DNA of 61,998 bases, from IMG/VR virus record IMGVR_UViG_3300033233_000039, positions 1 through 61,998 of that record; one strand, written 5' to 3'. Origin of the DNA: a virus. Of the stretch, positions 1,426-32,035 are shown one piece after another. The first letter of the stretch is position 1. Each line of letters begins with the position of its first letter. A model generated the notes under the pieces. It saw nothing but the letters and a program-made list of their open reading frames with translations. It was not told the origin of the DNA and searched no databases. The position numbers were made by a program, and so were the translations under genes.

Positions 1426-4400
1426 ATGGCACGTAATCACGTATGGCAATATCTCATTAATGAGCAAGGTCAACCAATACAAGGGGCTACAATACAGGTC
1501 TATAAGGCAGGTACTGAAACTGTGGCTAATATATTCCACAGTGAACGTGGTGGTTCTGCTGATACTGTTGGTCAAGTAACCACACTATCAAATGGTTTCT
1601 TTGAGTTCTGGATTGCTGATAGCTCCGAAGTTGGAGGTCATATATCAACTCAGAAGTTTAAGATTGCTTGGGATAAGGCTGGTGTTATCAAAGGATACAT
1701 TGACTATGTTGATGTATTCGGCTTTACATCATCTTACTATCCTGTTGAATTGGGAAATACTGATAATGTATTTGATAAGTCTATATCAAATCTATTAGGA
1801 ACTACATGGAATCAACACGTAGAATCAACACACTCTGAAAGTCCTCATGGAATTCAATCAGTAAATATTACTGATAATGATACCACTATGAATAAGTTGG
1901 TATCTAATAATCAGATGCTAACGATCTACGATGCTATCGGCGGTATTATAGGTGGAACAACAGAGAATTTTACTGTTGATAACCTAACAGTAAATCAAAG
2001 TGCATTCTTTACTAATGCCCCATCTGGCGGTGAGCCAGTTTTAAATAACCAATATGCAACAAAGAATTATGTTGATAATTATCAATCTACATCAAGTGTG
2101 TATAACATTAAAGTTGGGTATCATGCCCTTTTTGATAATACAACCGGAGATTATGATGTTGCTATAGGGTATGGAGCACTAAAATCAAATACAGAAGGTC
2201 AATATAATACCGCCATAGGTGCATATGCATTATATGACAATACAACTGGTTATGATAATGCTGCAATAGGTTATGAGGCACTTATACATAATACCTTTGG
2301 GTTTGGTAATACAAGTGTTGGTTATCGTTCATTACACTCCAACCTAACAGGAAATTATAACATTGCTGTTGGTTACAACACATTGTATGGAAATCAAGAT
2401 GGTAATGATAACATAGCATTGGGTTTTCAAGCACAACAATCAAGAACATCAGGAAATGATAATATTGCAATTGGTGCTGCTGCTCTTACTTCTAATATTA
2501 ACGGTGGAAAAAACACTGCGATAGGTGTTGGTGCTTCTGGTTTAAATACTGGCTCTGGTAATGTTTCTGTTGGTTATAAGGCCGGTAGAAGCGATGCCTC
2601 AAGCAATCATTTATGGATTGGAAATGATGATAATGGTGGCGGGACATATCTCAACACTTGGTTGTATGGTGATGAGTCATATAATATCACCATTCCTAAC
2701 GGTAGTTTTACTGCGGGTGATGCATACATTACCACATTAACATCAACAAATGTCGATGCATTGTCTGGCTCATTTGATTATCAATCCATTACCACGGCTG
2801 ATATTCTTACACTAAATAGCACATATACTAATGTGTTAAGTGGCTCTTATAGTCACCTTATCGCAACTGATGCTCATATATCTACATTATCTATTCCTGT
2901 TAGTGGTCAGACACCAACACTTGCAGCACACCTAACAACTAAAGCATATGTTGATTCAGCCGATAATCTCAAATTAAACCTGTTGACTGCAACAGAAAAC
3001 AATGTCCCTACAGGATTCGTTGATCAAACAACAAGCACTTTGTCATTAGCTGAGAACTTTGGTGCTGTAAATGATACATTCAAAGTTACTATTACAGGAA
3101 CTAACTTCCCTGTATACATCAATGGTATACGCCACCTAAAGAATACTGAATCAGTAACTCAGGTAGCTGCTACATCAAAGAGATACTTCATTTACTATGA
3201 CTCAATAACTAAATTGCTAACTGTATCTGGAACGGTCTGGAACATTGAATCGGAAAATTACGATGGTATGGCGTTTGTCTGTACTGTTCTTTGGGATGCT
3301 GTAAATCATCAAGGCATTCTTGAAGAAGAAAGACATCACTCTTGGAGAGATATTCATTGGCATCATTGGGCGCATCATTCAGTTGGGCCTCAATACAGCA
3401 CAATTCATCACGCAGATGCATTCGCCTTAACGAATCCCGGTGCTAATCAGTATGCTACATTCTCTATAGCAGCTGGTAACGTATATGATGAAGATATCAG
3501 CAACGATATGTCTAGTGCTGCAACCACATGTAATCTATTCATGCATCATACCGATGGTACAATGAAATGGGTCAAAGGTTCAGTTGCCCCTTATTATGCT
3601 CCTGCTGGTATACCTCAGTATGACACTGTAACTGGTCCTGCTCCTATCACTGGTAACAACACCAATGGATATTTTGTGTCTTGGGTGTATGGAACTAATG
3701 GTACTGGAGCAAATACAAATAGCAAGATTGCTATAGTTGTTGGTCAGAATACGACAACTACTATGACACTGACTCAAGCTCAGAATGTATCGTTCCCAAC
3801 ACTACCTGTTGGATTCATCATTGAGTGGAAGTTACTCTACAAGATGATATTCAGATATGGCACAGGCAGTGTTCTAACCTGGATAAGTAACCAAGATTAT
3901 AGACTATCTGGTTCTATTCCAAATGGACAGACACCTATATCAAATGTATCAGCTGCTTCTGTTTCTAATACCCCTTATGATGGTATCACCGCAGTAGATG
4001 TTCAAACGGCGATTAATCAGATTGCAGACAAATTAACAACCGTAAACTATAATGTTGCATCGATAATGACAGCCCAATCTTATACAGGGACCGCCGCCGA
4101 TTTACAGATTTTAGGTGGAACCGATCTAGTTGTTACCGAAAATGCTGGGGCGTATAATGATGGCACTTCCGAGCCATTAAGAGTAACTTTGACATTTGAT
4201 TCGGTTGTATCTTTTAATAAAGTCCATTTACATTATCGTTACTATAGAGTTTCAAGCTCTACAACACATACCGTCAATTTAGAAATCTGGAACAAAACAA
4301 CTACGCTCTGGGATAGTATTTTGTCACCTATCTCTAATAATACCTCCTCACTTCAAAATGTTACTTGGAACACTGAAGACAGTGTAAATTATATAGACAC

Positions 4401-5094
4401 ATCGAATAGCAATAGAGTAAAGATACGATTTAATCATACATCAACAGGTAATACGTCAGATAGATTAGAAATCGACCACGCTATTCTAGTTCATGGATTA
4501 TCTGGTGGAGAAGTTGTTACAAGTCATCAAGGACTTTCTGATAGGGATTTAGCGAATCAGCATCCAGCAACTTCAATCACCAATACTCCAGCCGGTTTAA
4601 TTTCATCTACCGATGTGCAGACCGCATTAAACGAACTTGATACAGAAAAGGTTGCTCTTGCTGGTATACCAGGTGGTCAGACTATCAATGGTGGTACAGC
4701 AGCAAGTGAGAACCTAACTCTATCAAGTACTGCACACGGCACTAAGGGTATAATCACTCTTAACTCATTAACAACCATTGTTGGTCAATACGACACAAGA
4801 GTTACATTTACTCCATTAGTAACTGGTGCTATCAGTCTTAATTACGCTACTGGAAACGGTAAATATATTGATGCATCTGGTATCTCAGCAGGTCAGACAT
4901 TAACTGTTACAACTACAGGATGGCCAGATGGATTCTGTATGTTGACTCTTGTTATTGATACAGGAGCTAACATACCAACAGTTACCGTTGATGGTCAAAC
5001 AGTAAGCCTGAATGCTTCAAAAGAACATTGGTTGACACTATGCAGGAAGTCTAGTGGTGCAACTACAAGAATCTCTCCTGCATTGGTGTATTAA
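1426..5094 (+). CDS. Large tail fibre/adhesin with YadA-head-like repeats
   Basis: This 1222-aa virion adhesin starts at ATG 1426 after an AAGGAA-like site. The N-terminal 100 residues look like a phage attachment domain (EQGQPIQGATIQVYKAG, a carboxypeptidase-regulatory-like beta fold). Residues about 225-400 contain about nine 17-residue repeats of the type NTAIGxxALxxNTTGxx, the pattern of the trimeric left-handed beta-roll of YadA heads. The middle has a His-rich loop near residue 645 (HWHHWAHH). Two copies of an A/STDVQTALNELDTEK-like coil unit occur near residues 860 and 1065. It is likely trimeric. The exact receptor cannot be read from the sequence. Confidence 0.8.
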   Translation: MARNHVWQYLINEQGQPIQGATIQVYKAGTETVANIFHSERGGSADTVGQVTTLSNGFFEFWIADSSEVGGHISTQKFKIAWDKAGVIKGYIDYVDVFGFTSSYYPVELGNTDNVFDKSISNLLGTTWNQHVESTHSESPHGIQSVNITDNDTTMNKLVSNNQMLTIYDAIGGIIGGTTENFTVDNLTVNQSAFFTNAPSGGEPVLNNQYATKNYVDNYQSTSSVYNIKVGYHALFDNTTGDYDVAIGYGALKSNTEGQYNTAIGAYALYDNTTGYDNAAIGYEALIHNTFGFGNTSVGYRSLHSNLTGNYNIAVGYNTLYGNQDGNDNIALGFQAQQSRTSGNDNIAIGAAALTSNINGGKNTAIGVGASGLNTGSGNVSVGYKAGRSDASSNHLWIGNDDNGGGTYLNTWLYGDESYNITIPNGSFTAGDAYITTLTSTNVDALSGSFDYQSITTADILTLNSTYTNVLSGSYSHLIATDAHISTLSIPVSGQTPTLAAHLTTKAYVDSADNLKLNLLTATENNVPTGFVDQTTSTLSLAENFGAVNDTFKVTITGTNFPVYINGIRHLKNTESVTQVAATSKRYFIYYDSITKLLTVSGTVWNIESENYDGMAFVCTVLWDAVNHQGILEEERHHSWRDIHWHHWAHHSVGPQYSTIHHADAFALTNPGANQYATFSIAAGNVYDEDISNDMSSAATTCNLFMHHTDGTMKWVKGSVAPYYAPAGIPQYDTVTGPAPITGNNTNGYFVSWVYGTNGTGANTNSKIAIVVGQNTTTTMTLTQAQNVSFPTLPVGFIIEWKLLYKMIFRYGTGSVLTWISNQDYRLSGSIPNGQTPISNVSAASVSNTPYDGITAVDVQTAINQIADKLTTVNYNVASIMTAQSYTGTAADLQILGGTDLVVTENAGAYNDGTSEPLRVTLTFDSVVSFNKVHLHYRYYRVSSSTTHTVNLEIWNKTTTLWDSILSPISNNTSSLQNVTWNTEDSVNYIDTSNSNRVKIRFNHTSTGNTSDRLEIDHAILVHGLSGGEVVTSHQGLSDRDLANQHPATSITNTPAGLISSTDVQTALNELDTEKVALAGIPGGQTINGGTAASENLTLSSTAHGTKGIITLNSLTTIVGQYDTRVTFTPLVTGAISLNYATGNGKYIDASGISAGQTLTVTTTGWPDGFCMLTLVIDTGANIPTVTVDGQTVSLNASKEHWLTLCRKSSGATTRISPALVY

Positions 5095-5096
5095 TT

Positions 5097-8000
5097 ATGA
5101 TGACTCCTGGTTTACTCAGAAACAACAATAGCACATTCTGGCCTTCTGATTACAACTTGAATCAGAGAGCGGGTACTAATCCTATTTTGTTTACTAGAGC
5201 TTCAAGGTATTTTGGACTTGACGGGTTTGGTAAACTAATTGAAACTTCTTCTGGAAGTTCTGCATATCCGGGGATGAGAGCAGTTACCAACCTATGCACA
5301 AATTCCAATCCTTCATATACTGCTGGAGGATCGACTCCCCCAACAGTGACTAATGGTGTTGTCTATCTAGGGAAGGTATGCACCAAGATAGATTTTCCAA
5401 GTGGTTCTGGTGGGTACAGTATTTCGAGAGCTAATAGTTCATATATATGGACAGGAATATTAGGTAGATCATACAGACATTCTTTGAGTATTGTAATGGG
5501 CAGAGCGTTGACTTCTGGTGAAGCAATGGTATCATATCATACTGGAGCAAATGGTCTATTTCAAATATTTGAGACATTTACAAACCATTCTACTTCATGG
5601 AGAAGACGTTCTTATCCAACAGCTGATATATGTGTTGTTTCAGGACCAAACTTCTCTAGTATATGTATATCTAACTTGAATGCACCATTAACTGTATATG
5701 TTTGTGAGATACAGGTTCAAGATGTTACTGGGATAGATGACGGAGTGCCTAGCGAATACGTTGCAACTACTTCAGAATCAGTAACTCAATTCTTTCCCTA
5801 TGCCAATCCGATGTCACTAAATTCTTACACTGCCACAGATTCTGGTGTTAGAACAATGCTTGCTGGAAACAATGGTTTTATATCTGAACCTTCAGCAACT
5901 AATCTATGTACTTGCTATAGTACTCCTGGTGCTGATCAATTGGGAACGGAATTAGTTACCAATGGAACTTTCTCATCTGATACTGGTTGGACGCACAATA
6001 GTGGTTGGACTTTGGGTGGAACGGTTGCCGCTGTCAATGTCGCAACTAACACACCCTTATACCAAGGATTAGCTACAACTATTGGTAAAGTTTACCGAAT
6101 AACCTATACAATATCAGGATATTCATCTGGTTCAGCAATACCTTTTATTGGTGGTACTCAGACAGGAACTACTAGATCAGGTAATGGAACATATACCGAG
6201 GATATAGTTTCTAATACTGCTTCTAGCACTTGTGGAATTACAACACCCGTAAGCACTACCTCTGTATTCTCAATTGATGATTTTTCAATCAAAGAAGTAG
6301 GTGGAACTAACTCTGTTACAGGTGCTTTCGTTTCTGGATTAGGTACTGGTTGCAAAGCTGTTACTGGAAATCTTGTTATTCCGGGTATTAATGTAATATC
6401 AGGAGATGCAGCCGCTTTCTTGACTATCGTAGCAGACTTAACGGCAGTAACTACGATGGGTGACAATAGTATAATGCCATCAGGTAAGGTTTATAAATTT
6501 GATAACAGTGCAGGTTCTACCGTTGCTTATTTTGATCTAACTGGAGTAATAAATACAACCAATGCAGGTATAGTCTCTCTTGTTGCAAGAGCGTCTGCTG
6601 GTTCTGGTTATTTCAAAACTGATTATGACGGTGGAAATACTGCCATATCTAGCTCGGCATACTCAAGATTATCAAGAGTTCCGTCTTTGACAAATACTCA
6701 GTCAAGAGTAAGAATGGTAGCTAATGCAAATTCAGTGATTTATTTCTATATGCCTCAGTTTGAGGATTTAGCGATGACTGTTCCAACATCTTATATACCA
6801 ACAAATGGAGCAACTGCAAGTAGAAGTGCAACTAAGTATTACACACCAACATTAAGAAATCTAGCTTATGCCGGTTATAGAGTTATTGATTTAAATTGGA
6901 CTCCTTTGGCAGTAGTTGTAGGTACTGAAGTGTGTTTATGGTCAAGTTACACTGATGCAAGCAACTACATCAAAATATCCAACAATGGTGTTATTACTTT
7001 TTTTGAGAAGAGAGTTGCTGGAGTTTCTGAATTCGTTACAATTGATCACGTTCCTGTAAGTGGAACAACTGCGTTAGTAACTGGCATCATATATCCTAAC
7101 AACACTTTGGGATTATTTGTTAATGGGGTTAGTGCTAATGCTGGATTAGGAAGTGAGTTGATTACAGTTGCTGCTGATAGAGACTTTAGTTCTGATACTG
7201 GATACTGGACAAAATCAACTGGAACAACTATAACTGCTGGCGTGTGCAGACTAACTTCTGTTGCCACCTCTTTATCTGCTATATCAAAAACAACTTTAAA
7301 GACAGTTAACCTCTGTTATCAGAGTTCTGCTATAATTTCAGGATATGTTGCTGGATCAATTTATATGTGTAATGGAACATACCCATTTTCCGCAAATGGA
7401 ACATACACGAGGTCTAATATTACAACAGTCTCAACAGAGAATTATAGCACAAGTGGTACGACAACACTAGATATTGATGATGTATCACTTAAACAAATCT
7501 TCAACAACTCCACCACAACTCCCGTAGTTCTTGGATCAACCATTGAGATAGGAAGTTTTAACGCTGGTAATGTTACTTATGGACAATTCAAGAACATCAG
7601 AATGACTTCTGATACCTTTGGAAGAAACAATTGGCCTCTTGGTTACTCAGGAGTTTCATCAACTGGCGCACCTACACCTGTTTATACAAGAAACAGTTTA
7701 TATTTTGGATTGGATGAGAATAGCAAAATGGGTGTTACATCATCTAATAGTCCAAGTTATGATGGGATGAGAAGTGTTACAAATAAATGCACATCCTTTG
7801 AAGGATTAAATTGGACTGCTGCCGGTTCAACACCACCAACTGTTGATAGCAACTCTATCTCATATTTAGGAAAGAACTCTGTTAAAGTTACTTTTCCAAC
7901 TAATTCTGGAGGTTGGGCGATATCACGAATTTCATTGCCAACACCAATAGCAACTGCCATAGTTGGTAGAACTTATAGATTAACAAAATCGTTGGTATTC

Positions 8001-12573: not shown

Positions 12574-13458
12574 TTAAAACCAAACATCCATGTTTTTTGA
12601 CATAGTGAGAATACTTTCTCTGTTTTGTGGCTCTAATAACATAGATACCTTACCAACAAAAAACTTTTCGGTTTGTTTATGGTAGTCGTGTTGAATGCCT
12701 TCTTTGGTAAATTCTTCAGGCCACTCATAGAATCCTATGTTGTTGACTCCAAATCTATTTCTCTTAACATATATAAGCTTTAGCTTTTCGCCTTCTTTGA
12801 TATGCTCATACTTGTTATAGATACCAAATTCTCTCAATAGGTATTCATAATTAAAAGCTCCTTTGACATTATATGGAGTTCCTTTTACACAAGTATTATT
12901 AACAATATACTTGGTTAGGTTTCTAACACCGATATTAACGCTCAAATCTTCGATATTAGCGTGTTTCTGACTCTCTTTATAGTCTTCCACCACTTTCTTA
13001 ATATCTTCGTCTGAAGAGCCTTTTAGGATCATTTCAAGTACATGTGTTAATGCTGGTTTAAAAATGGTTGGTGTCTCTGATCGAATCATTTCTAAACCAG
13101 TAACATCAATCTTATCCTCTTTCTTTCCTTCCTTATTAACTAAATGATATCCGTACTTCTTCTTAGCAACAAACAACGCAGTCTTACAAACAATCTCTTG
13201 TTTGAAGTTAATAGAGAAATCAGTAACTGTTGAGTTATATGTTCCTAATTGAGTTATGGTTAAAGCATTGCTATCAACATGGTTCTCTAAACACTTGGAT
13301 ATTCTTAATACTATATCCACTTGTTTGTCTAAAGGCAAGCTTAACCATTTATCCTTTGGGATACCATGTGCTAAAATAAAGTCCTCTACATTGACGAACA
13401 AGCTATCAGTGTCAACTCCTTCAAATGTAGGTGATATGGTCAATATAACCATCATCAC
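12574..13458 (-). CDS. 43: DNA polymerase (gp43-like), C-terminal fragment with motif C, thumb and clamp-binding tail
   Basis: The 294-aa product carries family B polymerase motif C (GVDTDSLFVNV, residues about 14-24). The palm and thumb regions follow (GLEMIRSETPTIFKP, KGTPYNVKGAFNYEYLL, KLKLIYVKRNRFGVNNIGFYEW), and the gene ends NMDVWF, a likely clamp-binding tail like that of T4 gp43. The N-terminal half is a separate gene at 18064-19809. The first residues here (MMMVILTISPTF) do not look like polymerase. A +1 frame change at ATT TGA (13422-13427) would join this frame to an SD-preceded ATG at 13483, giving GYIDHITYIEGVDTDSLF, a far better motif C strand. The true start is therefore uncertain. 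The two parts presumably assemble non-covalently. Confidence 0.85.
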   Translation of the reverse strand: MMMVILTISPTFEGVDTDSLFVNVEDFILAHGIPKDKWLSLPLDKQVDIVLRISKCLENHVDSNALTITQLGTYNSTVTDFSINFKQEIVCKTALFVAKKKYGYHLVNKEGKKEDKIDVTGLEMIRSETPTIFKPALTHVLEMILKGSSDEDIKKVVEDYKESQKHANIEDLSVNIGVRNLTKYIVNNTCVKGTPYNVKGAFNYEYLLREFGIYNKYEHIKEGEKLKLIYVKRNRFGVNNIGFYEWPEEFTKEGIQHDYHKQTEKFFVGKVSMLLEPQNRESILTMSKNMDVWF

Positions 13459-16819: not shown

Positions 16820-18067
16820 ATGGCTGATCCTATTTATACCAAAAAATGCTCTAAATGCAATGAAATTAAACCTATTGGAGATTTTAAACAACGAAGCGAT
16901 AGAGTCGGAAAATATACACCACAGTGCATAACATGTATCAACAAGGAAAATAGGGAAAAATATAAAAATAGTATAAAAATAAGAGAGAAGTTACAAATAG
17001 CATCAAAAGAGTATTATACTCATAATAGAGAAAAATGTAAGATAGATCGACAATTATATAGAAAATCAACACCATCATACTTAACATATTCGCGTCAGCT
17101 AACTATTGATGAAGATTCAAGATTATCTGATGATGGTATATCACTGGAAGTCAAATGCAAATATTGCCGGGAGTACTTTAGTCCTACTAATAGCCAGGTA
17201 AATAATAGAATTCTTAGCATAAATGGTAAATCTGGCGGTGAGAATAATGTATATTGTTCTGTTGATTGTAAGAAAAGTTGCGAAACATACAGACAGCGAA
17301 AGAATATTAAGAAATCAAAAGAAAATACATCTCCACCAATATCGTTTACCGAAAAAAAATGTAGTAAGTGTGGAGAGATTAAGCCTATTAGTGACTTTAG
17401 AAAGAGAAAAGAACGAAGACTTGGATATCAATCACACTGTAATGAATGTGTTAAACAAAGACAAAAATCAAGGTATCCAATCGTTAAAGATAAACTAAAT
17501 GAAGATAGAAGACAATATAGAATTAACAATCCCACATATACAAAATTAAAGAATGAAAAAATTATAAAAGCTTTTGCTATATATGATACATATAAAAATC
17601 AACTAACCATAGAGGAAGAACCTACATTATCAGCAGATAGTGTATTCCTAGAATGTAGATGTAAATATTGTGGTGATTATTTTATCCCTACTAGTAGAAG
17701 TGTTATAAGACGAGTGCAGTCTATTAAGGGCATTAAGGAAGGTGATAACAATCTATATTGCTCTGATAATTGTAAAAAATCGTGCGGAACATATAATCAG
17801 AAATTTTTTCCTAAAAATTTCAAAGTAAATACCTCAAGAGAGGTACAACCTCAACTAAGAAAGATGGTTCTAGCCTTAGACAACTACACTTGTCAGATAT
17901 GTGGCAATACAAAAGAAGATGCCCAATTGCATTGCCATCATACTGAAGGTGTTGAGATTAACCCTATAGAATCTGCTGATATTGATAAGTGTATTACATT
18001 ATGTAAAAAGTGTCATAATAAAACTCATAAAAACTGCGATATGAAAAGAAAGAAGTGTAAAGTTTAA
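16820..18067 (+). CDS. HNH homing endonuclease with duplicated zinc modules
   Basis: Start at ATG 16820 after GAAGGAG, giving 415 aa. A two-part unit occurs twice, near residues 5-130 and 175-330. Each unit has KKCSKCxEIKPIxDFKxR...C..C followed by CKYC...Y-C-S-x-x-C-K-K-S-C, which are likely zinc-bound DNA-recognition modules. The C-terminal HNH domain (residues about 350-405) reads CQICGNTKEDAQLHCHHTEG ... CITLCKKCHNKTH, the classical CxxC-HNH-CxxC form. The gene runs opposite to the polymerase, and its last 4 nt overlap the end of the polymerase N-fragment, so it sits exactly at the break. Confidence 0.85.
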   Translation: MADPIYTKKCSKCNEIKPIGDFKQRSDRVGKYTPQCITCINKENREKYKNSIKIREKLQIASKEYYTHNREKCKIDRQLYRKSTPSYLTYSRQLTIDEDSRLSDDGISLEVKCKYCREYFSPTNSQVNNRILSINGKSGGENNVYCSVDCKKSCETYRQRKNIKKSKENTSPPISFTEKKCSKCGEIKPISDFRKRKERRLGYQSHCNECVKQRQKSRYPIVKDKLNEDRRQYRINNPTYTKLKNEKIIKAFAIYDTYKNQLTIEEEPTLSADSVFLECRCKYCGDYFIPTSRSVIRRVQSIKGIKEGDNNLYCSDNCKKSCGTYNQKFFPKNFKVNTSREVQPQLRKMVLALDNYTCQICGNTKEDAQLHCHHTEGVEINPIESADIDKCITLCKKCHNKTHKNCDMKRKKCKV

Positions 18068-19809
18068 TATTCTATTATTTCCCGTAGTATATTTAGTAAT
18101 TCATCGCTAGGGTTGTTTAGAAGCTCATTCGCGTACCTTTGTCCATCAAGGATGGTCTGTCTTCCGGTACTAGTTATAGCTTCTGCTGCATGTTTATTGA
18201 AGTATCTTGAGTATGGTACGCCCATGACACCGTACACAGAATTTAATAATATCTTCAATGCCCACTGCAAATCATGTTTTTGTTTAGCCTTTTCAAGCAG
18301 GTCTTTCTTTTCTTTACCCTTTAACTTATCAGCTTCTTTATATAGTCTTTTCTTCTCACCATTTTGAAACTTTCTTTTTTCAAATACTAACTTCTCAACA
18401 ATAGCGATAACACCTTTAGGTGAATTCTTAAACATGCTACCACAAGGAGCAACACAAAACAACTTCTTTTTCAAACTTTGGTTAATTGCATCTAACTGAG
18501 CACCTTCAATAAAAACAATGGTTCTTAGATCATCGTTCTTCATGAAATAGAATGGTGGGAATTCCTTGGTTTGCATATATTCAACGATGATCTTATAGAA
18601 CGGTCTATCATCATTATCCTTATCATGAACCCCTTTTTCGGTCCTATAATCAGTTATATGCTTCTCACTGAATCCAATGATCCTCCCAAAGTATGTCTCT
18701 GGAGATATGTTAAGTGTTATAATAGCAGTGGGGTATGAGCTTGTTATATCAATATCTATTACCCAATTATACAATCCTTTCTTTGGCTCTTTAACGAATG
18801 CAGCAGGATACCACTCCTGACTACCACCAACCAATCTTGGAGCACATAAATTATTTCTTCTGTAATATGTCAACATCAAGCCTTCAATAAGAGCTGTTGT
18901 TGAGTTATACATTGCCATAGGTACTTTACAAAGTAATGCAAGTGATTGAATTAGCGCAAAATAACCACATTTTTTGTCGATATTTTGAACTAATTGAGCG
19001 TCACGGAAATTATATTCACAATATAGTTGCCAATTTTGCTTATATAGGTTTCGTAGATTTCCATATTCGCCATAGTCAATCTTACCACCAAGACCCTCTA
19101 ACTGAGCAACGTAATCAAGCTTGCCACTTTCAAGGTTATTAGTTGAATACCATTTGTATATTGCTTTATAGTCAAGAATGGTTACTCCTGCTATATAGAT
19201 TTGTTGAATGCCATCCTTAGTGAACCAAGTACTTGCTTGTTTACTAGGTGAAAGTAATTTCCATAATTTAGTATCATCACCAAATAGCTTCTTAGTTCTG
19301 TTGATGATATATGGTAAGTCGAACCCACCTCTTGTGTTAGATTTCTTATCGTCACAGTAAAACCATCCTGTTGATATATCACATGGATTCTTATGCTTCC
19401 AATTGAAATATTGGGTAAGTAAATCTCTTTCATTATCACAATGATGATATGTGAGATTCTTTATTCCAGTATCATTAGTATAAGCATGTAATCCAAAAGA
19501 CTGAATTCCTTTGTTATGTGCTATGGTGATAATAGTAATTGGATGATCTGCTTTATCTGGACTCGGAAAGACCTCCGAATATACTTCAATATCGTCAAAA
19601 TGACATTCCAACTTAGGAACAGACATTTCTTCATCTGGTATTTGGTGGTATCTTTCAGTTAGAAATTGAACAGTTGGAAGAACTTCATTTTCCAGACAAT
19701 CTTTATTCTTATCAAGAAAGGTTCTATATTGTTGATAATTTTCAAACTCTCTCCTACCAACATAATCACCATAAATTGATTTTGTTTTGGTTGGTGTTGG
19801 TGATTTCAT
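18064..19809 (-). CDS. 43: DNA polymerase (gp43-like), N-terminal fragment with exonuclease, motif A and motif B
   Basis: The 581-aa product contains the 3'-5' exonuclease (Exo I FDDIEV with Asp73/Glu75; Exo II GFDLPYIINR; Exo III FRDAQL), palm motif A (DIDITSSYPTAI), and fingers motif B (ALKILLNSVYGVMG). It stops at ILREIIEY, just before the strand leading to motif C, which is in the separate gene at 12574-13458. The reading frame stays polymerase-like upstream of ATG 19809, back to about 19917 (EITLWETIKGERF...NWVPYVYM). There the only SD (GGAGGAG, 19930-19924) and a good promoter lie, but no ATG, GTG or TTG. Initiation at a non-standard codon (ATC at 19917) is suspected. The HNH gene converges on the 3' end. 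Confidence 0.9.
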   Translation of the reverse strand: MKSPTPTKTKSIYGDYVGRREFENYQQYRTFLDKNKDCLENEVLPTVQFLTERYHQIPDEEMSVPKLECHFDDIEVYSEVFPSPDKADHPITIITIAHNKGIQSFGLHAYTNDTGIKNLTYHHCDNERDLLTQYFNWKHKNPCDISTGWFYCDDKKSNTRGGFDLPYIINRTKKLFGDDTKLWKLLSPSKQASTWFTKDGIQQIYIAGVTILDYKAIYKWYSTNNLESGKLDYVAQLEGLGGKIDYGEYGNLRNLYKQNWQLYCEYNFRDAQLVQNIDKKCGYFALIQSLALLCKVPMAMYNSTTALIEGLMLTYYRRNNLCAPRLVGGSQEWYPAAFVKEPKKGLYNWVIDIDITSSYPTAIITLNISPETYFGRIIGFSEKHITDYRTEKGVHDKDNDDRPFYKIIVEYMQTKEFPPFYFMKNDDLRTIVFIEGAQLDAINQSLKKKLFCVAPCGSMFKNSPKGVIAIVEKLVFEKRKFQNGEKKRLYKEADKLKGKEKKDLLEKAKQKHDLQWALKILLNSVYGVMGVPYSRYFNKHAAEAITSTGRQTILDGQRYANELLNNPSDELLNILREIIEY

Positions 19810-22801: not shown

Positions 22802-23086
22802 ATGAATAAACTAGATTTGATCAAAAAAATCAGCGACAACCTGATCATGGAAGAAAAAGATGTCACTGATGTTTTGAATGAGCTAATATTAATAATGAAT
22901 GAGTCTTTTGTCAACCATGAGAAAATTGTGTTGACAGGTCTTGGATCATTTAATATAGTTGAAAGAGCATCTAGGGTAGCTATGAATCCACAAACAAGGG
23001 AACCCATAGCCATACCCAATAAACTAGTTGTTAAATTTATACCTAGCACCAGCATTATCATAAAACTTAATAAGGAGAGTAAATGA
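22802..23086 (+). CDS. HU/IHF-family DNA-binding protein
   Basis: The 94-aa product is the usual HU size. It has an N-terminal dimerisation helix pair (KLDLIKKISDNL ... VTDVLNELI), then the characteristic GLGSFNIVERASRVAMNPQT and the beta-arm region ending AIPNKLVVKFIPS. The PQTREPI segment is the DNA-clasping arm. It bends or compacts phage DNA, possibly at the replication origin or during head filling. Its stop overlaps the clamp-loader ATG by 4 nt. Confidence 0.9.
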   Translation: MNKLDLIKKISDNLIMEEKDVTDVLNELILIMNESFVNHEKIVLTGLGSFNIVERASRVAMNPQTREPIAIPNKLVVKFIPSTSIIIKLNKESK

Positions 23087-23682
23087 GTACGACAAAAATG
23101 GAATTCGTTCATCAACCAAAAACCATCGATGAAATGGTATTACATACTGATGTTAAAGTTAGGCTAGTAAAAGCTTTGGAAGACATTCCTAATATTATGT
23201 TGATAGGTTCTCCTGGTGTTGGTAAGGGTACTTGGGTTGATATTCTTAGGAAAACATATCCTGATTCCGCTTGTATGAAGCTTAATGGGTCTGATGAACG
23301 AGGTATTGATATCTTCCGCAATCGAATCAAACCCTTCTGTTCAACACCGTCATTGGATGGTTCACTCAACATCATGTATATCAATGAGTGTTTGGAAGAA
23401 CATGAGGAAATTAGATTGAGCAATGGAGAATTTATTAAGTTGTGTGATATTGATGGTGAAGTCTCTATTTTAAGCTTTAATATGGAAACAAGCGAAATTG
23501 AGAAGGATACTGCTGTTGTTATAAAAAAATCAATTGATGATGTATATGAAGTCGAATTGGATGATGGAAGAAAGATCAAGTGCAATGATAATCATCCTTT
23601 TTTAGTACGAGAGGCTAATGGTATCATCATAGAGAGAAAATTAAAAGACCTTGCGGTTGGGGATGATATAGTGACTATCTAA
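23083..23682 (+). CDS. 44: Clamp loader large subunit (gp44) N-extein plus N-half of a split intein
   Basis: Residues 1-102 are the N-terminal AAA+ part of gp44 with Walker A GSPGVGKGT (42-50), running to the Walker B strand (LNIMYINE). At Cys103 (nt 23389) an intein begins: block A CLEEHEEIRLSNG, then VYEVELDDGRKIKCNDNHPF (block B, T/N-x-x-H type), ending KDLAVGDDIVTI and TAA. The matching C-half is in the gene at 23941. Trans-splicing of the two products would give a 304-aa gp44, near T4's 319. Walker B reads INECD where T4 has IDEFD, so the metal-binding Asp position is Asn. Confidence 0.9.
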   Translation: MSTTKMEFVHQPKTIDEMVLHTDVKVRLVKALEDIPNIMLIGSPGVGKGTWVDILRKTYPDSACMKLNGSDERGIDIFRNRIKPFCSTPSLDGSLNIMYINECLEEHEEIRLSNGEFIKLCDIDGEVSILSFNMETSEIEKDTAVVIKKSIDDVYEVELDDGRKIKCNDNHPFLVREANGIIIERKLKDLAVGDDIVTI

Positions 23683-23709
23683 CAAAAATATATCAATATC
23701 TTCTAAGGA

Positions 23710-23901
23710 ATGTACTTAAATAAATTAGGAATCGACCTCATTGAATATTATAAGAAATACCTTCCTGATTATATATCGACATGTAAGCAATGCGGTGATA
23801 CAATTGCAATATCGAAAGATTTGATAGTAAAGTCAACCAAGAAGTTTTGTGATTTAGATTGTTATATGAAATATAAAAAGTTTTACTGGATGGGACAATA
23901 A
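23710..23901 (+). CDS. 63-aa zinc-module protein between the split-intein halves (endonuclease remnant)
   Basis: The product starts MYLNKLGIDLIEYYKKYLPD and carries CKQCGDTIAISKDL ... KKFCDLDCYMKYKK, a C-x2-C/C-x3-C module like the ones repeated in the HNH endonuclease at 16820. No nuclease core is present. It occupies the place held by free-standing homing endonucleases in known fractured genes, so it is probably a remnant of the mobile part. It is in the same frame as both flanking genes, separated by TAA codons. Confidence 0.5.
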   Translation: MYLNKLGIDLIEYYKKYLPDYISTCKQCGDTIAISKDLIVKSTKKFCDLDCYMKYKKFYWMGQ

Positions 23902-23940
23902 TTGGAAAGAATCTTTTATAAAAGGAATTAAGGTAAGGAA

Positions 23941-24654
23941 ATGAAAATATCTAAGATTGAATATGTAGGGAAGGCGGCTGTTATTAATTTAACTGTTAAA
24001 AAAAATCACACTTTCATAACTAGAAATGGAATACCTACTCATAATTGCGATTCTGTAACTCCTGATACTCAATTGGCTATTCGAGACTTCATGGAGTCAG
24101 TTAAGGATATCACACGTTTTGTGTTTTGTGCCAACTATGGGTACAAACTTATCCCAGAACTGAAATCAAGATGTCGTGTTATTGAGATGGTTAATCCTCC
24201 TGCTAAAGATATATACTTTTGCCTTAAAACCATTCTTAAAAAAGAAGGGGTTAAACATAAGGATGCTTCTATAATCGAGATAGTTAAGAAATGCTATCCT
24301 GATATCAGACAGTCTATCATTTCTCTTCAGGAGAATATTAATGATGGGGTATTGGCTGAGAATGTCATCGTTACCACCAATGATGATATCAACAAGCTAG
24401 TATTTGATGCTATGTTGACTCAAGACCCTGATAATGTTAGAAAGGTGCTTAGAAGTCATCCTATCGATTATACGTCACTGTACAAATATTTGTACACATT
24501 AATCATGGATGCTGCGGGTAATGATGTATTCAAGAAAGATGCTAGTGCTATTATGCTTATAGGTGAGCATTTACATCGAAATGTGACTTCAGGCATACCA
24601 GAAATCAATTTCCTACACTTCTATGTAACACTTCTTATAAAGGATGTCATTTAA
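23941..24654 (+). CDS. 44: C-half of split intein plus clamp loader (gp44) C-extein
   Basis: Residues 1-35 are a C-intein (MKISKIEYVGKAAVINLTV, block F region, then NHTFITRNGIPTHN, block G ending His-Asn). Cys36 (nt 24046) is the +1 nucleophile. The C-extein follows: CDSVTPDTQLAIRDFMESV, FCANYGYKLIPELKSRCRVI (sensor 1 and Arg finger SRC), PDIRQSIISLQ (sensor 2 like T4 NFPDFRKTI), then the helical collar domain. With the N-half it forms the ATPase that opens gp45 clamps. The SD AAGGTAAGGAA precedes the ATG. Confidence 0.9.
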   Translation: MKISKIEYVGKAAVINLTVKKNHTFITRNGIPTHNCDSVTPDTQLAIRDFMESVKDITRFVFCANYGYKLIPELKSRCRVIEMVNPPAKDIYFCLKTILKKEGVKHKDASIIEIVKKCYPDIRQSIISLQENINDGVLAENVIVTTNDDINKLVFDAMLTQDPDNVRKVLRSHPIDYTSLYKYLYTLIMDAAGNDVFKKDASAIMLIGEHLHRNVTSGIPEINFLHFYVTLLIKDVI

Positions 24655-26077: not shown

Positions 26078-26818
26078 TTGAAAATCAATATTGAGAATTT
26101 CAAAGAACTGTTAGATAAGGCAACACTTCATTACACTGCTCCATATGTTGGTGTATCCACCAGCAAGGATAAAGTTCATGTTGGTCTTAAAGGGGATAAC
26201 TTTATTGTTATTGTCGATAAGCCTAATGATATCTTTACCGATGTTGCTGATGACTTTGAGATGTTTTTTGAAGAACCCAATCAGCAACTTAAGCCTTATC
26301 TTGACCTAATGAATGGAATTGATAATGTTAAGGTTACTGTTCATGGATCAACTAGAATGATTCTGGAAGCAGAAGGACAAAAATCAATTATCCATTTCTG
26401 TGCTAAGAATCGTATTCCTTATTTTGCTGGTGATGGGCCAAAGGCGAAAGGAAGTGTTATCTATGATGTTAAAGTAGATGATGATTTGATTTATAAGTTT
26501 GACAAGATTAAAAGTGTGGGTAGTAGATTTAAGAAGGTTTATATTACTGTTCAAAGTAAAAAGGTTAGTATTGAAGCTACAGACAAAACTAATCAATACT
26601 CTAATGGCTTGGTTTTGTCTCTATGTGATACTGATCAAGACAACTGTGAGCTTTGCTTTGAGTCTAAAACATTGTATAGTGTATTCAAATTGGTTGAGGC
26701 TGAGTATTCTGAATTTAAAATGGCTGTTCAGTTTGACTATGAAAGGAAGTCCGGGTTGATTTCCTTCATTAAATCTGACAACAGTGAAAAGTATTATATA
26801 ATCTCTTCTGCTGAGTAA
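26078..26818 (+). CDS. 45: Sliding clamp (gp45-like)
   Basis: Start is TTG at 26078 after AAGGAG. The 246-aa product (T4 gp45 is 228) has the acidic, beta-alpha-beta repeat pattern of phage processivity clamps: MKINIENFKELLDKATLHYT, a central KAKGSVIYDVKVDDDLIYKF, and KVSIEATDKTNQYSNGL. It follows gp44/gp62. It tethers polymerase and also activates T4-type late promoters such as the TATAAATA sites in this window. Confidence 0.85.
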   Translation: MKINIENFKELLDKATLHYTAPYVGVSTSKDKVHVGLKGDNFIVIVDKPNDIFTDVADDFEMFFEEPNQQLKPYLDLMNGIDNVKVTVHGSTRMILEAEGQKSIIHFCAKNRIPYFAGDGPKAKGSVIYDVKVDDDLIYKFDKIKSVGSRFKKVYITVQSKKVSIEATDKTNQYSNGLVLSLCDTDQDNCELCFESKTLYSVFKLVEAEYSEFKMAVQFDYERKSGLISFIKSDNSEKYYIISSAE

Positions 26819-31090: not shown

Positions 31091-32035
31091 ATGAATATAA
31101 ACAATACCAAAATATTAGTAACATGCGAGGAATGCGGAAAAGAAAGAGAATTGAGATACACTAAACATCCTTCCAAATTATGCAAAAAATGTAGTAATAC
31201 ATCAGTTCATAAAAATAAAATAGTTACTCCAGAAACCAGATTAAAACTATCAATATCACATACTGGTAAAGTTGCCTCAATAGAAACCAGATTAAAACTG
31301 TCGGAGCAACGACAAGGAGATAAAAACGGGTTTTATGGTAGAAAACACACAGAATCAGCTAAAAATAAAATATCAAAGCATAGTGCTCTATTATCGGAGT
31401 CTGGATATTTTCAATCTCAAGACTTTAGACATAAGGTATCTATAGGCACTATTAAGGGATTTGATAGAAAAGAAAGAGATACCGGAATTAGACAGAAATC
31501 AGTATATGATATATGGGTAGATAAATATGGGGCTGATATAGCAAACGATAAAGATGCTGATAGAAAAGCTAAATGGAGAAAATCATCTGCTGGTGAAAAT
31601 AATCCAATGTATGGTAAAATAGCACCAATAGGCTCTGGTAATGGTTGGTCTGGTTGGTATAGAGGAATATATTTTAGAAGCTTGTTGGAATTGAGTTACT
31701 TGATTTATATGATGGATCATGATATATTATTTGAAAGTGGAGAGTGTGTTCAACATAGAATAAAGTATGATGATAATAAGAACTATTATTGTGACTACTA
31801 TCTAGTGTTGCAGGAACAATATATTGAAATAAAACCATCTGCTTTACTATATACCGAGTCGAACTTAAAGAAGTTTAAAAGTGCTAAAGATAAGTTTGGC
31901 GATAAATTTGTTGTTTTGACCGAAAAAGAAATTGACAAAATATCAAACGATAGGATATTAGAAGAGTATAAATGCTGTAATATCATTTTTATTGATAGAT
32001 GGGATAAAAAATATAGAGAGAGGTATTTGAAGTGA
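31091..32035 (+). CDS. Homing endonuclease with NUMOD3 repeats and PD-(D/E)XK-like core
   Basis: The 314-aa product has an N-terminal zinc module (CEECGKERELRYTKHPSKLC with KKCS). NUMOD3 repeats follow (GDKNGFYGRKHTESAKNKIS; GENNPMYGK). The C-terminal domain has FRSLLELSYLIYMMDHDILF, then the Tyr-rich YYCDYYLVLQEQYIEIKPS. That E...(C)D-x-n-E-x-K arrangement is typical of PD-(D/E)XK homing endonucleases, with VLTEKEI as later strand. It sits inside the kinase gene, and its own last codons overlap the new kinase start (GTG 32032). Confidence 0.8.
   Translation: MNINNTKILVTCEECGKERELRYTKHPSKLCKKCSNTSVHKNKIVTPETRLKLSISHTGKVASIETRLKLSEQRQGDKNGFYGRKHTESAKNKISKHSALLSESGYFQSQDFRHKVSIGTIKGFDRKERDTGIRQKSVYDIWVDKYGADIANDKDADRKAKWRKSSAGENNPMYGKIAPIGSGNGWSGWYRGIYFRSLLELSYLIYMMDHDILFESGECVQHRIKYDDNKNYYCDYYLVLQEQYIEIKPSALLYTESNLKKFKSAKDKFGDKFVVLTEKEIDKISNDRILEEYKCCNIIFIDRWDKKYRERYLK

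What the first reader, a model, noticed from the sequence alone, without database searches (positions are those of the whole stretch)
23083..24654. Clamp loader gp44 is a split-intein gene broken at Walker B
N-intein (97 aa, starting Cys103) and C-intein (35 aa, ending His-Asn before Cys) flank a 258-nt gap with a zinc-module ORF. The exteins join to a complete 304-aa gp44 at the catalytic Walker B loop (INE/CD). Fractured genes with split inteins and a nearby homing endonuclease are known from metagenomes for gp41 and other genes; a gp44 case appears new to me. All three ORFs share one frame, separated by TAA codons, suggesting a recent origin from one continuous intein.
Basis: partly seen in the sequence, partly recalled or inferred. 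Interest (0 to 1): 0.9.

Follow-up and report, generated by a model that had tools for sequence, protein, structure and literature searches.

The report
Split-intein gp44 with endonuclease remnant
A phage's gene for the motor that loads its DNA-replication clamp is broken in two, and each half carries half of a self-splicing protein tag that should stitch the product back together; relatives show the same break filled by a DNA-cutting mobile gene, of which only a scrap is left here.

Summary
gp44 (clamp-loader ATPase) is in two ORFs: a 102-aa extein plus 97-aa N-intein (23083-23682) and a 35-aa C-intein plus 202-aa extein (23941-24654). Splice residues are intact and the exteins are complementary halves of one clamp loader. 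No other gp44 is in the record.

It is not a one-off. I found about 20 distinct contigs with the same intein family at or just after the Walker B motif of phage AAA+ ATPases (gp44, and a CobS/MoxR-like ATPase). The site occurs empty, with contiguous mini-inteins, split with nothing between, and split around large endonuclease genes. The window's 63-aa 'zinc ORF' is a remnant of such an endonuclease (49% identical to one zinc module; 54.7 bits against at most 26.2 for shuffles), so there is no working endonuclease here.

Most likely the halves are made separately and trans-spliced into a 304-aa gp44. Splicing itself is untested. This is a new member of the known fractured-gene class; I could not check whether Dassa et al. 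2009 already list gp44.

The parts
23072..23077 (+). AAGGAG ribosome-binding-site-like sequence before the N half
   Evidence: sequence
23083..23388 (+). gp44 N-extein (102 aa): P-loop GSPGVGKGT to Walker B strand ending INE
   Evidence: phrog_168 positions 14-116, E=9.6e-19
23389..23682 (+). N-intein (97 aa, Cys1; NDNH block-B-like) and TAA stop
   Evidence: PF14890 E=3.7e-11; 49% identical to L002 N-intein
23710..23901 (+). 63-aa ORF: remnant of a homing-endonuclease zinc module; nuclease domain absent
   Evidence: 49% identity over 51 aa to the L038 endonuclease, 54.7 bits, best of 2000 shuffles 26.2; hhalign 1.3e-7 to endonuclease profile
23930..23939 (+). AAGGTAAGGA ribosome-binding-site-like sequence before the C half
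   Evidence: sequence
23941..24045 (+). C-intein (35 aa) ending NGIPTHN
   Evidence: 63% identical to L002 C-intein; PF14890 positions 122-155 weak
24046..24654 (+). gp44 C-extein (202 aa, Cys+1; SRC motif, lid and C-terminal domains) and TAA stop
   Evidence: phrog_168 positions 109-307, E=1.5e-25; Gp44_lid PF21328
24913..25242 (+). gp62 clamp-loader small subunit, neighbour
   Evidence: PF16790 E=5.2e-7; phrog_225 1e-13
26078..26818 (+). sliding clamp (gp45-like), neighbour
   Evidence: phrog_223 E=4.4e-5

Best explanation
gp44 is a 'fractured' gene. The two halves are translated separately, each from its own start codon and ribosome-binding-like sequence. The N-intein and C-intein halves associate into one HINT fold and trans-splice by the standard class-1 route (Cys1 acyl shift, transfer to Cys+1, Asn cyclisation), leaving a 304-aa gp44 with a Cys right after the Walker B Glu. 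The 258-nt gap held a zinc-module plus PD-(D/E)XK-type homing endonuclease, which spread the element and is now reduced to a 63-aa scrap. Shown: anatomy, intact splice residues, complementary exteins, the same locus with intact endonuclease in relatives, and the remnant's homology. Inferred: that splicing happens, that spliced gp44 is the working form, and that the ancestral endonuclease was active.
For: Complementary family matches. Only one gp44 in this record, and only the split pair in the 204-, 158-, 154- and 129-kb relatives G001-G004 apart from weak other-ATPase matches. L002 has the same split at 59% identity with Cys1, NHPF, THN and Cys+1 conserved. Contiguous mini-inteins occur at the same site in L008, L032, L033, L035 and L040; the L040 model matches T4 gp44 and mini-inteins such as NpuDnaB in the PDB (TM-score 0.84 on the target). 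Intein-free relatives L043 (LNE|SD) and L045 (LDE|FD) show the empty site, against L021 (LDE|CD). Differences between window and L002 fall mostly in third codon positions, and least often in second positions except in the short C-intein. Endonucleases fill the gap in L006, L009, L023, L024, L028, L029, L047, and the window ORF is homologous to their zinc modules.
Against: No splicing experiment. The C-intein alone is below Pfam's cut-off. The record is a fragment, so a second gp44 elsewhere cannot be excluded. Walker B is NE rather than DE (also in intein-free L043, so not caused by the intein), and the ATPase activity of this lineage is unproven.
Confidence: 0.9

Rival explanations
1. The two halves work as a non-covalent two-chain gp44; the intein pieces are leftovers and do not splice (genes-in-pieces, as for nrdA of phage Aeh1).
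For: Genes-in-pieces without splicing are described in phages (PMC10448857), and the DNA polymerase in this same record is in two pieces with no intein.
Against: Cys1, the block-B His, the HN end and Cys+1 are all kept in the window and its relatives; leftovers would be expected to lose them. The same intein exists contiguous in relatives, where it must splice to restore Walker B. The break lies in the core beta-sheet at Walker B.
Confidence: 0.06
2. The locus is a decaying pseudogene.
For: The endonuclease is nearly gone; Walker B is NE.
Against: Both halves are full length with no frameshift, no other copy was found, differences sit mostly in third codon positions, and the NE variant also occurs in an intact intein-free relative.
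Confidence: 0.02
3. Assembly chimera or sequencing artefact.
For: Metagenomic record, single contig.
Against: The same architecture occurs in about 20 independent contigs from different metagenomes plus the public record LR756500.1.
Confidence: 0.01
4. The halves are joined at RNA level or by stop-codon read-through (all ORFs share a frame).
For: All in-frame stops are TAA and the frame is shared.
Against: Four in-frame TAA codons in the gap, TAA is the commonest stop in the record, Rfam finds no intron, and in most split relatives the halves are in different frames.
Confidence: 0.01

Closest known systems
Fractured genes with split inteins and free-standing endonucleases (Dassa et al. 2009, doi 10.1093/nar/gkp095; not readable here, known from citations and memory)
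   Same: A phage DNA-metabolism gene broken by a split intein at the usual endonuclease position, with an endonuclease gene between the halves in relatives.
   Different: In the window the endonuclease is reduced to a 63-aa remnant. The relatives' enzymes match TnsA-like nucleases in Pfam, not an EDxHD/Vsr family by sequence. The host gene is gp44 (whether listed in 2009: not checked).
Metagenomic split inteins gp41-1, gp41-8, NrdJ-1, IMPDH-1
   Same: Same HINT fold and roughly 100+35 aa split; the window intein aligns with gp41-1 and NrdJ-1 structures.
   Different: Different host protein and insertion site; low sequence identity.
Archaeal RFC inteins (sites a, b, c; PMC2814812)
   Same: Inteins in a clamp-loader ATPase, a homologue of gp44.
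   Different: Those sites are K51/T52 (P-loop), A76/S77 and S138/C139, not Walker B.
TerL1-e intein of mycobacteriophages (PMC5050341)
   Same: Phage intein inserted at a Walker B motif of an ATPase.
   Different: Contiguous intein in the terminase of mycobacteriophages.
Fractured gp44 of uncultured huge phage LR756500.1 (L047 here)
   Same: gp44 split at the same place by the same intein family.
   Different: Carries an apparently intact 447-aa endonuclease; the record has no annotation.

Membership tests
Class-1 split intein | Cys (or Ser) at intein position 1 | tested here: met
   Cys103 of the N ORF; conserved in all relatives
Class-1 split intein | Block B His | tested here: met
   NDNHPF in the window; His and Pro conserved
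Class-1 split intein | C-terminal His-Asn followed by Cys/Ser/Thr | tested here: met
   THN|C
Class-1 split intein | N and C pieces together make one HINT domain | tested here: met
   Joined sequence matches solved inteins over both parts; model of the contiguous relative L040 matches mini-inteins
Class-1 split intein | Trans-splicing activity | not testable with these tools
   needs co-expression
Fractured gene (Dassa 2009 arrangement) | Enzyme gene broken in two by a split intein | tested here: met
Fractured gene (Dassa 2009 arrangement) | Free-standing endonuclease gene between the halves | tested here: not met
   Window gap holds only a 63-aa zinc-module remnant; met in L006, L009, L023, L024, L028, L029, L047
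Vsr-like / EDxHD homing endonuclease | EDxHD signature (as recalled) | tested here: not met
   Absent from all gap proteins of relatives; Pfam gives TnsA-like. The fold search was weak: TnsA prob 0.96, I-Bth0305I prob 0.66
T4 gp44 clamp-loader large subunit | Family match over the whole joined protein, SRC motif, gp62/gp45 next door | tested here: met
T4 gp44 clamp-loader large subunit | Walker B hhhhDE | tested here: not met
   INE in the window; also NE in L002, L006 and intein-free L043

The most novel reading that the evidence does not exclude
The Walker B intein of phage AAA+ ATPases is a repeatedly used docking site. Different cargo genes (PD-(D/E)XK endonucleases with variable zinc arrays, a GIY-YIG-like ORF in L010, an antisense HNH-like ORF in L022, an ADP-ribosyltransferase-like ORF in L018/L026) have separately entered the same point of the HINT domain, splitting it each time. 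Some copies later lost the cargo, either staying split (window, L007, L021, L027) or re-fusing into a contiguous mini-intein (possibly CobS-like L039, nested among split relatives). Splitting would then be reversible and recurrent, not a single ancient event.
Probability: 0.3. Interest if true: 0.65.

Novelty: new member of a known kind. Interest (0 to 1): 0.5.

Why it matters
Split inteins are major protein-engineering tools, and how they arise is debated. This site gives, within one intein family and one host protein, empty, contiguous, split-with-endonuclease, split-with-broken-endonuclease, split-with-remnant and split-with-nothing alleles, so the order of events becomes testable. It also puts a new set of natural split inteins, with very conserved C-intein ends and Glu|Cys junctions, in an essential replication ATPase that should be inactive until spliced.

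Tried and rejected
A single-sequence scan with the C half found no relatives; the alignment and a motif pattern were needed. The genome collection gave no pattern match, so this looks metagenomic-phage only at that sensitivity. The zinc ORF gave only weak Pfam/PHROG matches and a poor pairwise match to the first relative until better relatives were in hand. Rfam and tRNA scans of the window were empty, against an RNA intron. The idea that NE in Walker B was caused by the intein was rejected, because intein-free L043 also has it. Placing the gap endonucleases in the Vsr/EDxHD family was not supported by sequence; the fold search was too weak to decide. The GIY-YIG (L010), HNH (L022) and ADP-ribosyltransferase (L018/L026) readings rest on motifs by eye plus weak or no family hits. 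Intein and extein trees: splits and cis forms are intermixed (at least 5 changes on each tree), but intein-tree support is low, so the direction of change is not settled. Dassa 2009 and Carvajal-Vallejos 2012 were not held.

Full report
WHAT IS THERE. The N ORF (23083-23682) is 102 aa of a clamp-loader ATPase followed by a 97-aa N-intein. The C ORF (23941-24654) is a 35-aa C-intein followed by 202 aa of clamp loader. The two exteins match complementary parts of PHROG clamp-loader family 168 (14-116 and 109-307 of 314), and joined they match RFC and T4 gp44 across the junction. The intein halves match complementary ends of the Pfam intein splicing domain and, read together, solved inteins including gp41-1, DnaE and NrdJ-1. 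gp62 and a gp45-like clamp gene follow. N- and C-half ORFs have their own AAGGAG- and AAGGTAAGGA-type sequences ahead of the ATG. No other gp44 is in the record, which is the whole IMG/VR contig and may be a fragment.

RELATIVES. L002 (a 204-kb contig) has the same split at 59% identity, with a gap of about 1 kb holding an endonuclease broken by a 10-nt tandem repeat. A DNA pattern for the C-intein end found 27 stretches in IMG/VR and none in the genome collection. With the alignment search they resolve to one intein family at Walker B of gp44 in most cases, a few residues downstream in L010 and L025, and at Walker B of a CobS/MoxR-like ATPase in L028, L030, L034, L036, L039 and (shifted) L022. 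LR756500.1, a 462-kb uncultured phage, also carries it. Among 50,697 phage records this was the only close hit, so isolates seem almost free of it.

STATES AT ONE SITE. Empty: L043, L045, L011, L044, KVP40 and others. Contiguous mini-intein of 140-160 aa: L008, L032, L033, L035, L040, L039. Split with nothing or almost nothing between: L007 (ORFs overlap), L021, L027. Split around a zinc-module plus E..VDF..E.KP nuclease, matching TnsA-like nucleases in Pfam and PHROG 15427 'endonuclease' in the members tested: L006, L009, L023, L024, L025, L028, L029, L030, L034, L036, L047. Split around a frame-broken endonuclease: L002, L038. Split around other cargo: L010, L022, L018/L026. The L045/L021 pair shows the empty site DE|FDGASDQFYKALRG beside the filled site DE|CDGASDQFYKALRG.

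THE ZINC ORF. The 63-aa ORF aligns with the zinc module just ahead of the nuclease domain in the L038 endonuclease (49% over 51 aa, 54.7 bits; best of 2000 shuffles 26.2) and with L023 (38%, 38.9 bits); profile comparison with other endonucleases gives 1.3e-7. The rest of the endonuclease, including the nuclease domain, is gone. It is a remnant.

ORIGIN OF THE SPLIT. In split relatives the halves share a frame in 7 of 20 loci, near the one third expected by chance, and not in L002, the nearest one. The split is shared with L002 and so probably predates this genome. On the gp44 tree window+L002 form a supported pair, and L006 and the intein-free L043 are next; cis and split forms are intermixed on both trees. 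Contiguous L008 is a close relative of split L009, and contiguous L039 of split L028/L036, with matching sequence up to both sides of the break. Either direction remains possible.

MECHANISM. Separate translation, assembly of the HINT fold and trans-splicing leave Cys in place of the variable residue after the Walker B Glu. Shown: motifs, complementarity, relatives. Inferred: the reaction itself. A two-chain gp44 without splicing is the main rival and is disfavoured by the conserved splice residues and by the contiguous relatives, which must splice to restore Walker B.

NOVELTY. The arrangement class is known (Dassa 2009). Walker B insertion is known in TerL (PMC5050341). Archaeal RFC inteins use other sites (PMC2814812). 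Library searches for gp44 or clamp loader with intein gave no report of a gp44 intein, but most subscription papers are missing. I therefore rate it a new member of a known kind, with above-average value because one site shows the whole life cycle.

Noticed in passing
window 18064-19809 (-) and 12574-13458 (-): The family-B DNA polymerase is also in two pieces (family positions 55-564 and 577-835 of 856), 4.6 kb apart, the second starting just before the GVDTDS motif, with an RNA ligase and two endonuclease genes between them and no visible intein ends.
   Followed up: partly
L026 2602-3465 (same in L018; L031 cut): The gap of this split gp44 carries, instead of an endonuclease, an intact 288-aa ORF resembling ADP-ribosyltransferases (PF03496 E=0.01; weak Alt-like PHROG 802), an unusual cargo for an intein gap.
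   Followed up: partly
L025, ORF at 3356-4231 (-): This gp44 has a second intein end right after the Walker A Lys position (HHN|TTAAFAL) as well as the Walker-B-region split intein, so it may be in three pieces.
   Followed up: no
window 23083-24654, L002, L006, L043: This gp44 lineage has Walker B NE instead of DE and a GKGT P-loop, with or without the intein; whether it hydrolyses ATP normally is open.
   Followed up: partly
L002 about 5090-5116; L038: The gap endonucleases of L002 (10-nt tandem repeat) and L038 are frame-broken, early stages of the decay seen in the window.
   Followed up: partly
L039 against L028 and L036: The contiguous CobS intein L039 keeps a QQQKIKS stretch that forms the start of the separate C halves in L028/L036 and nests among them on the intein tree, hinting at re-fusion of a split intein.
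   Followed up: partly
L022 gap: A CobS-like gene is split around a zinc/HNH-like ORF that runs on the opposite strand; weak family hits only.
   Followed up: partly
Salmonella phages S16, STP4-a (hits H44-H51); PHROG 16259: UvsW-type helicase genes of isolated phages show a weak match to this N-intein, possibly another fractured gene in laboratory-available phages.
   Followed up: no
window 31091-32035 (+): A free-standing PD-(D/E)XK-type endonuclease with a core faintly similar to the gap endonucleases (hhalign E=8e-4, probability 25%).
   Followed up: partly
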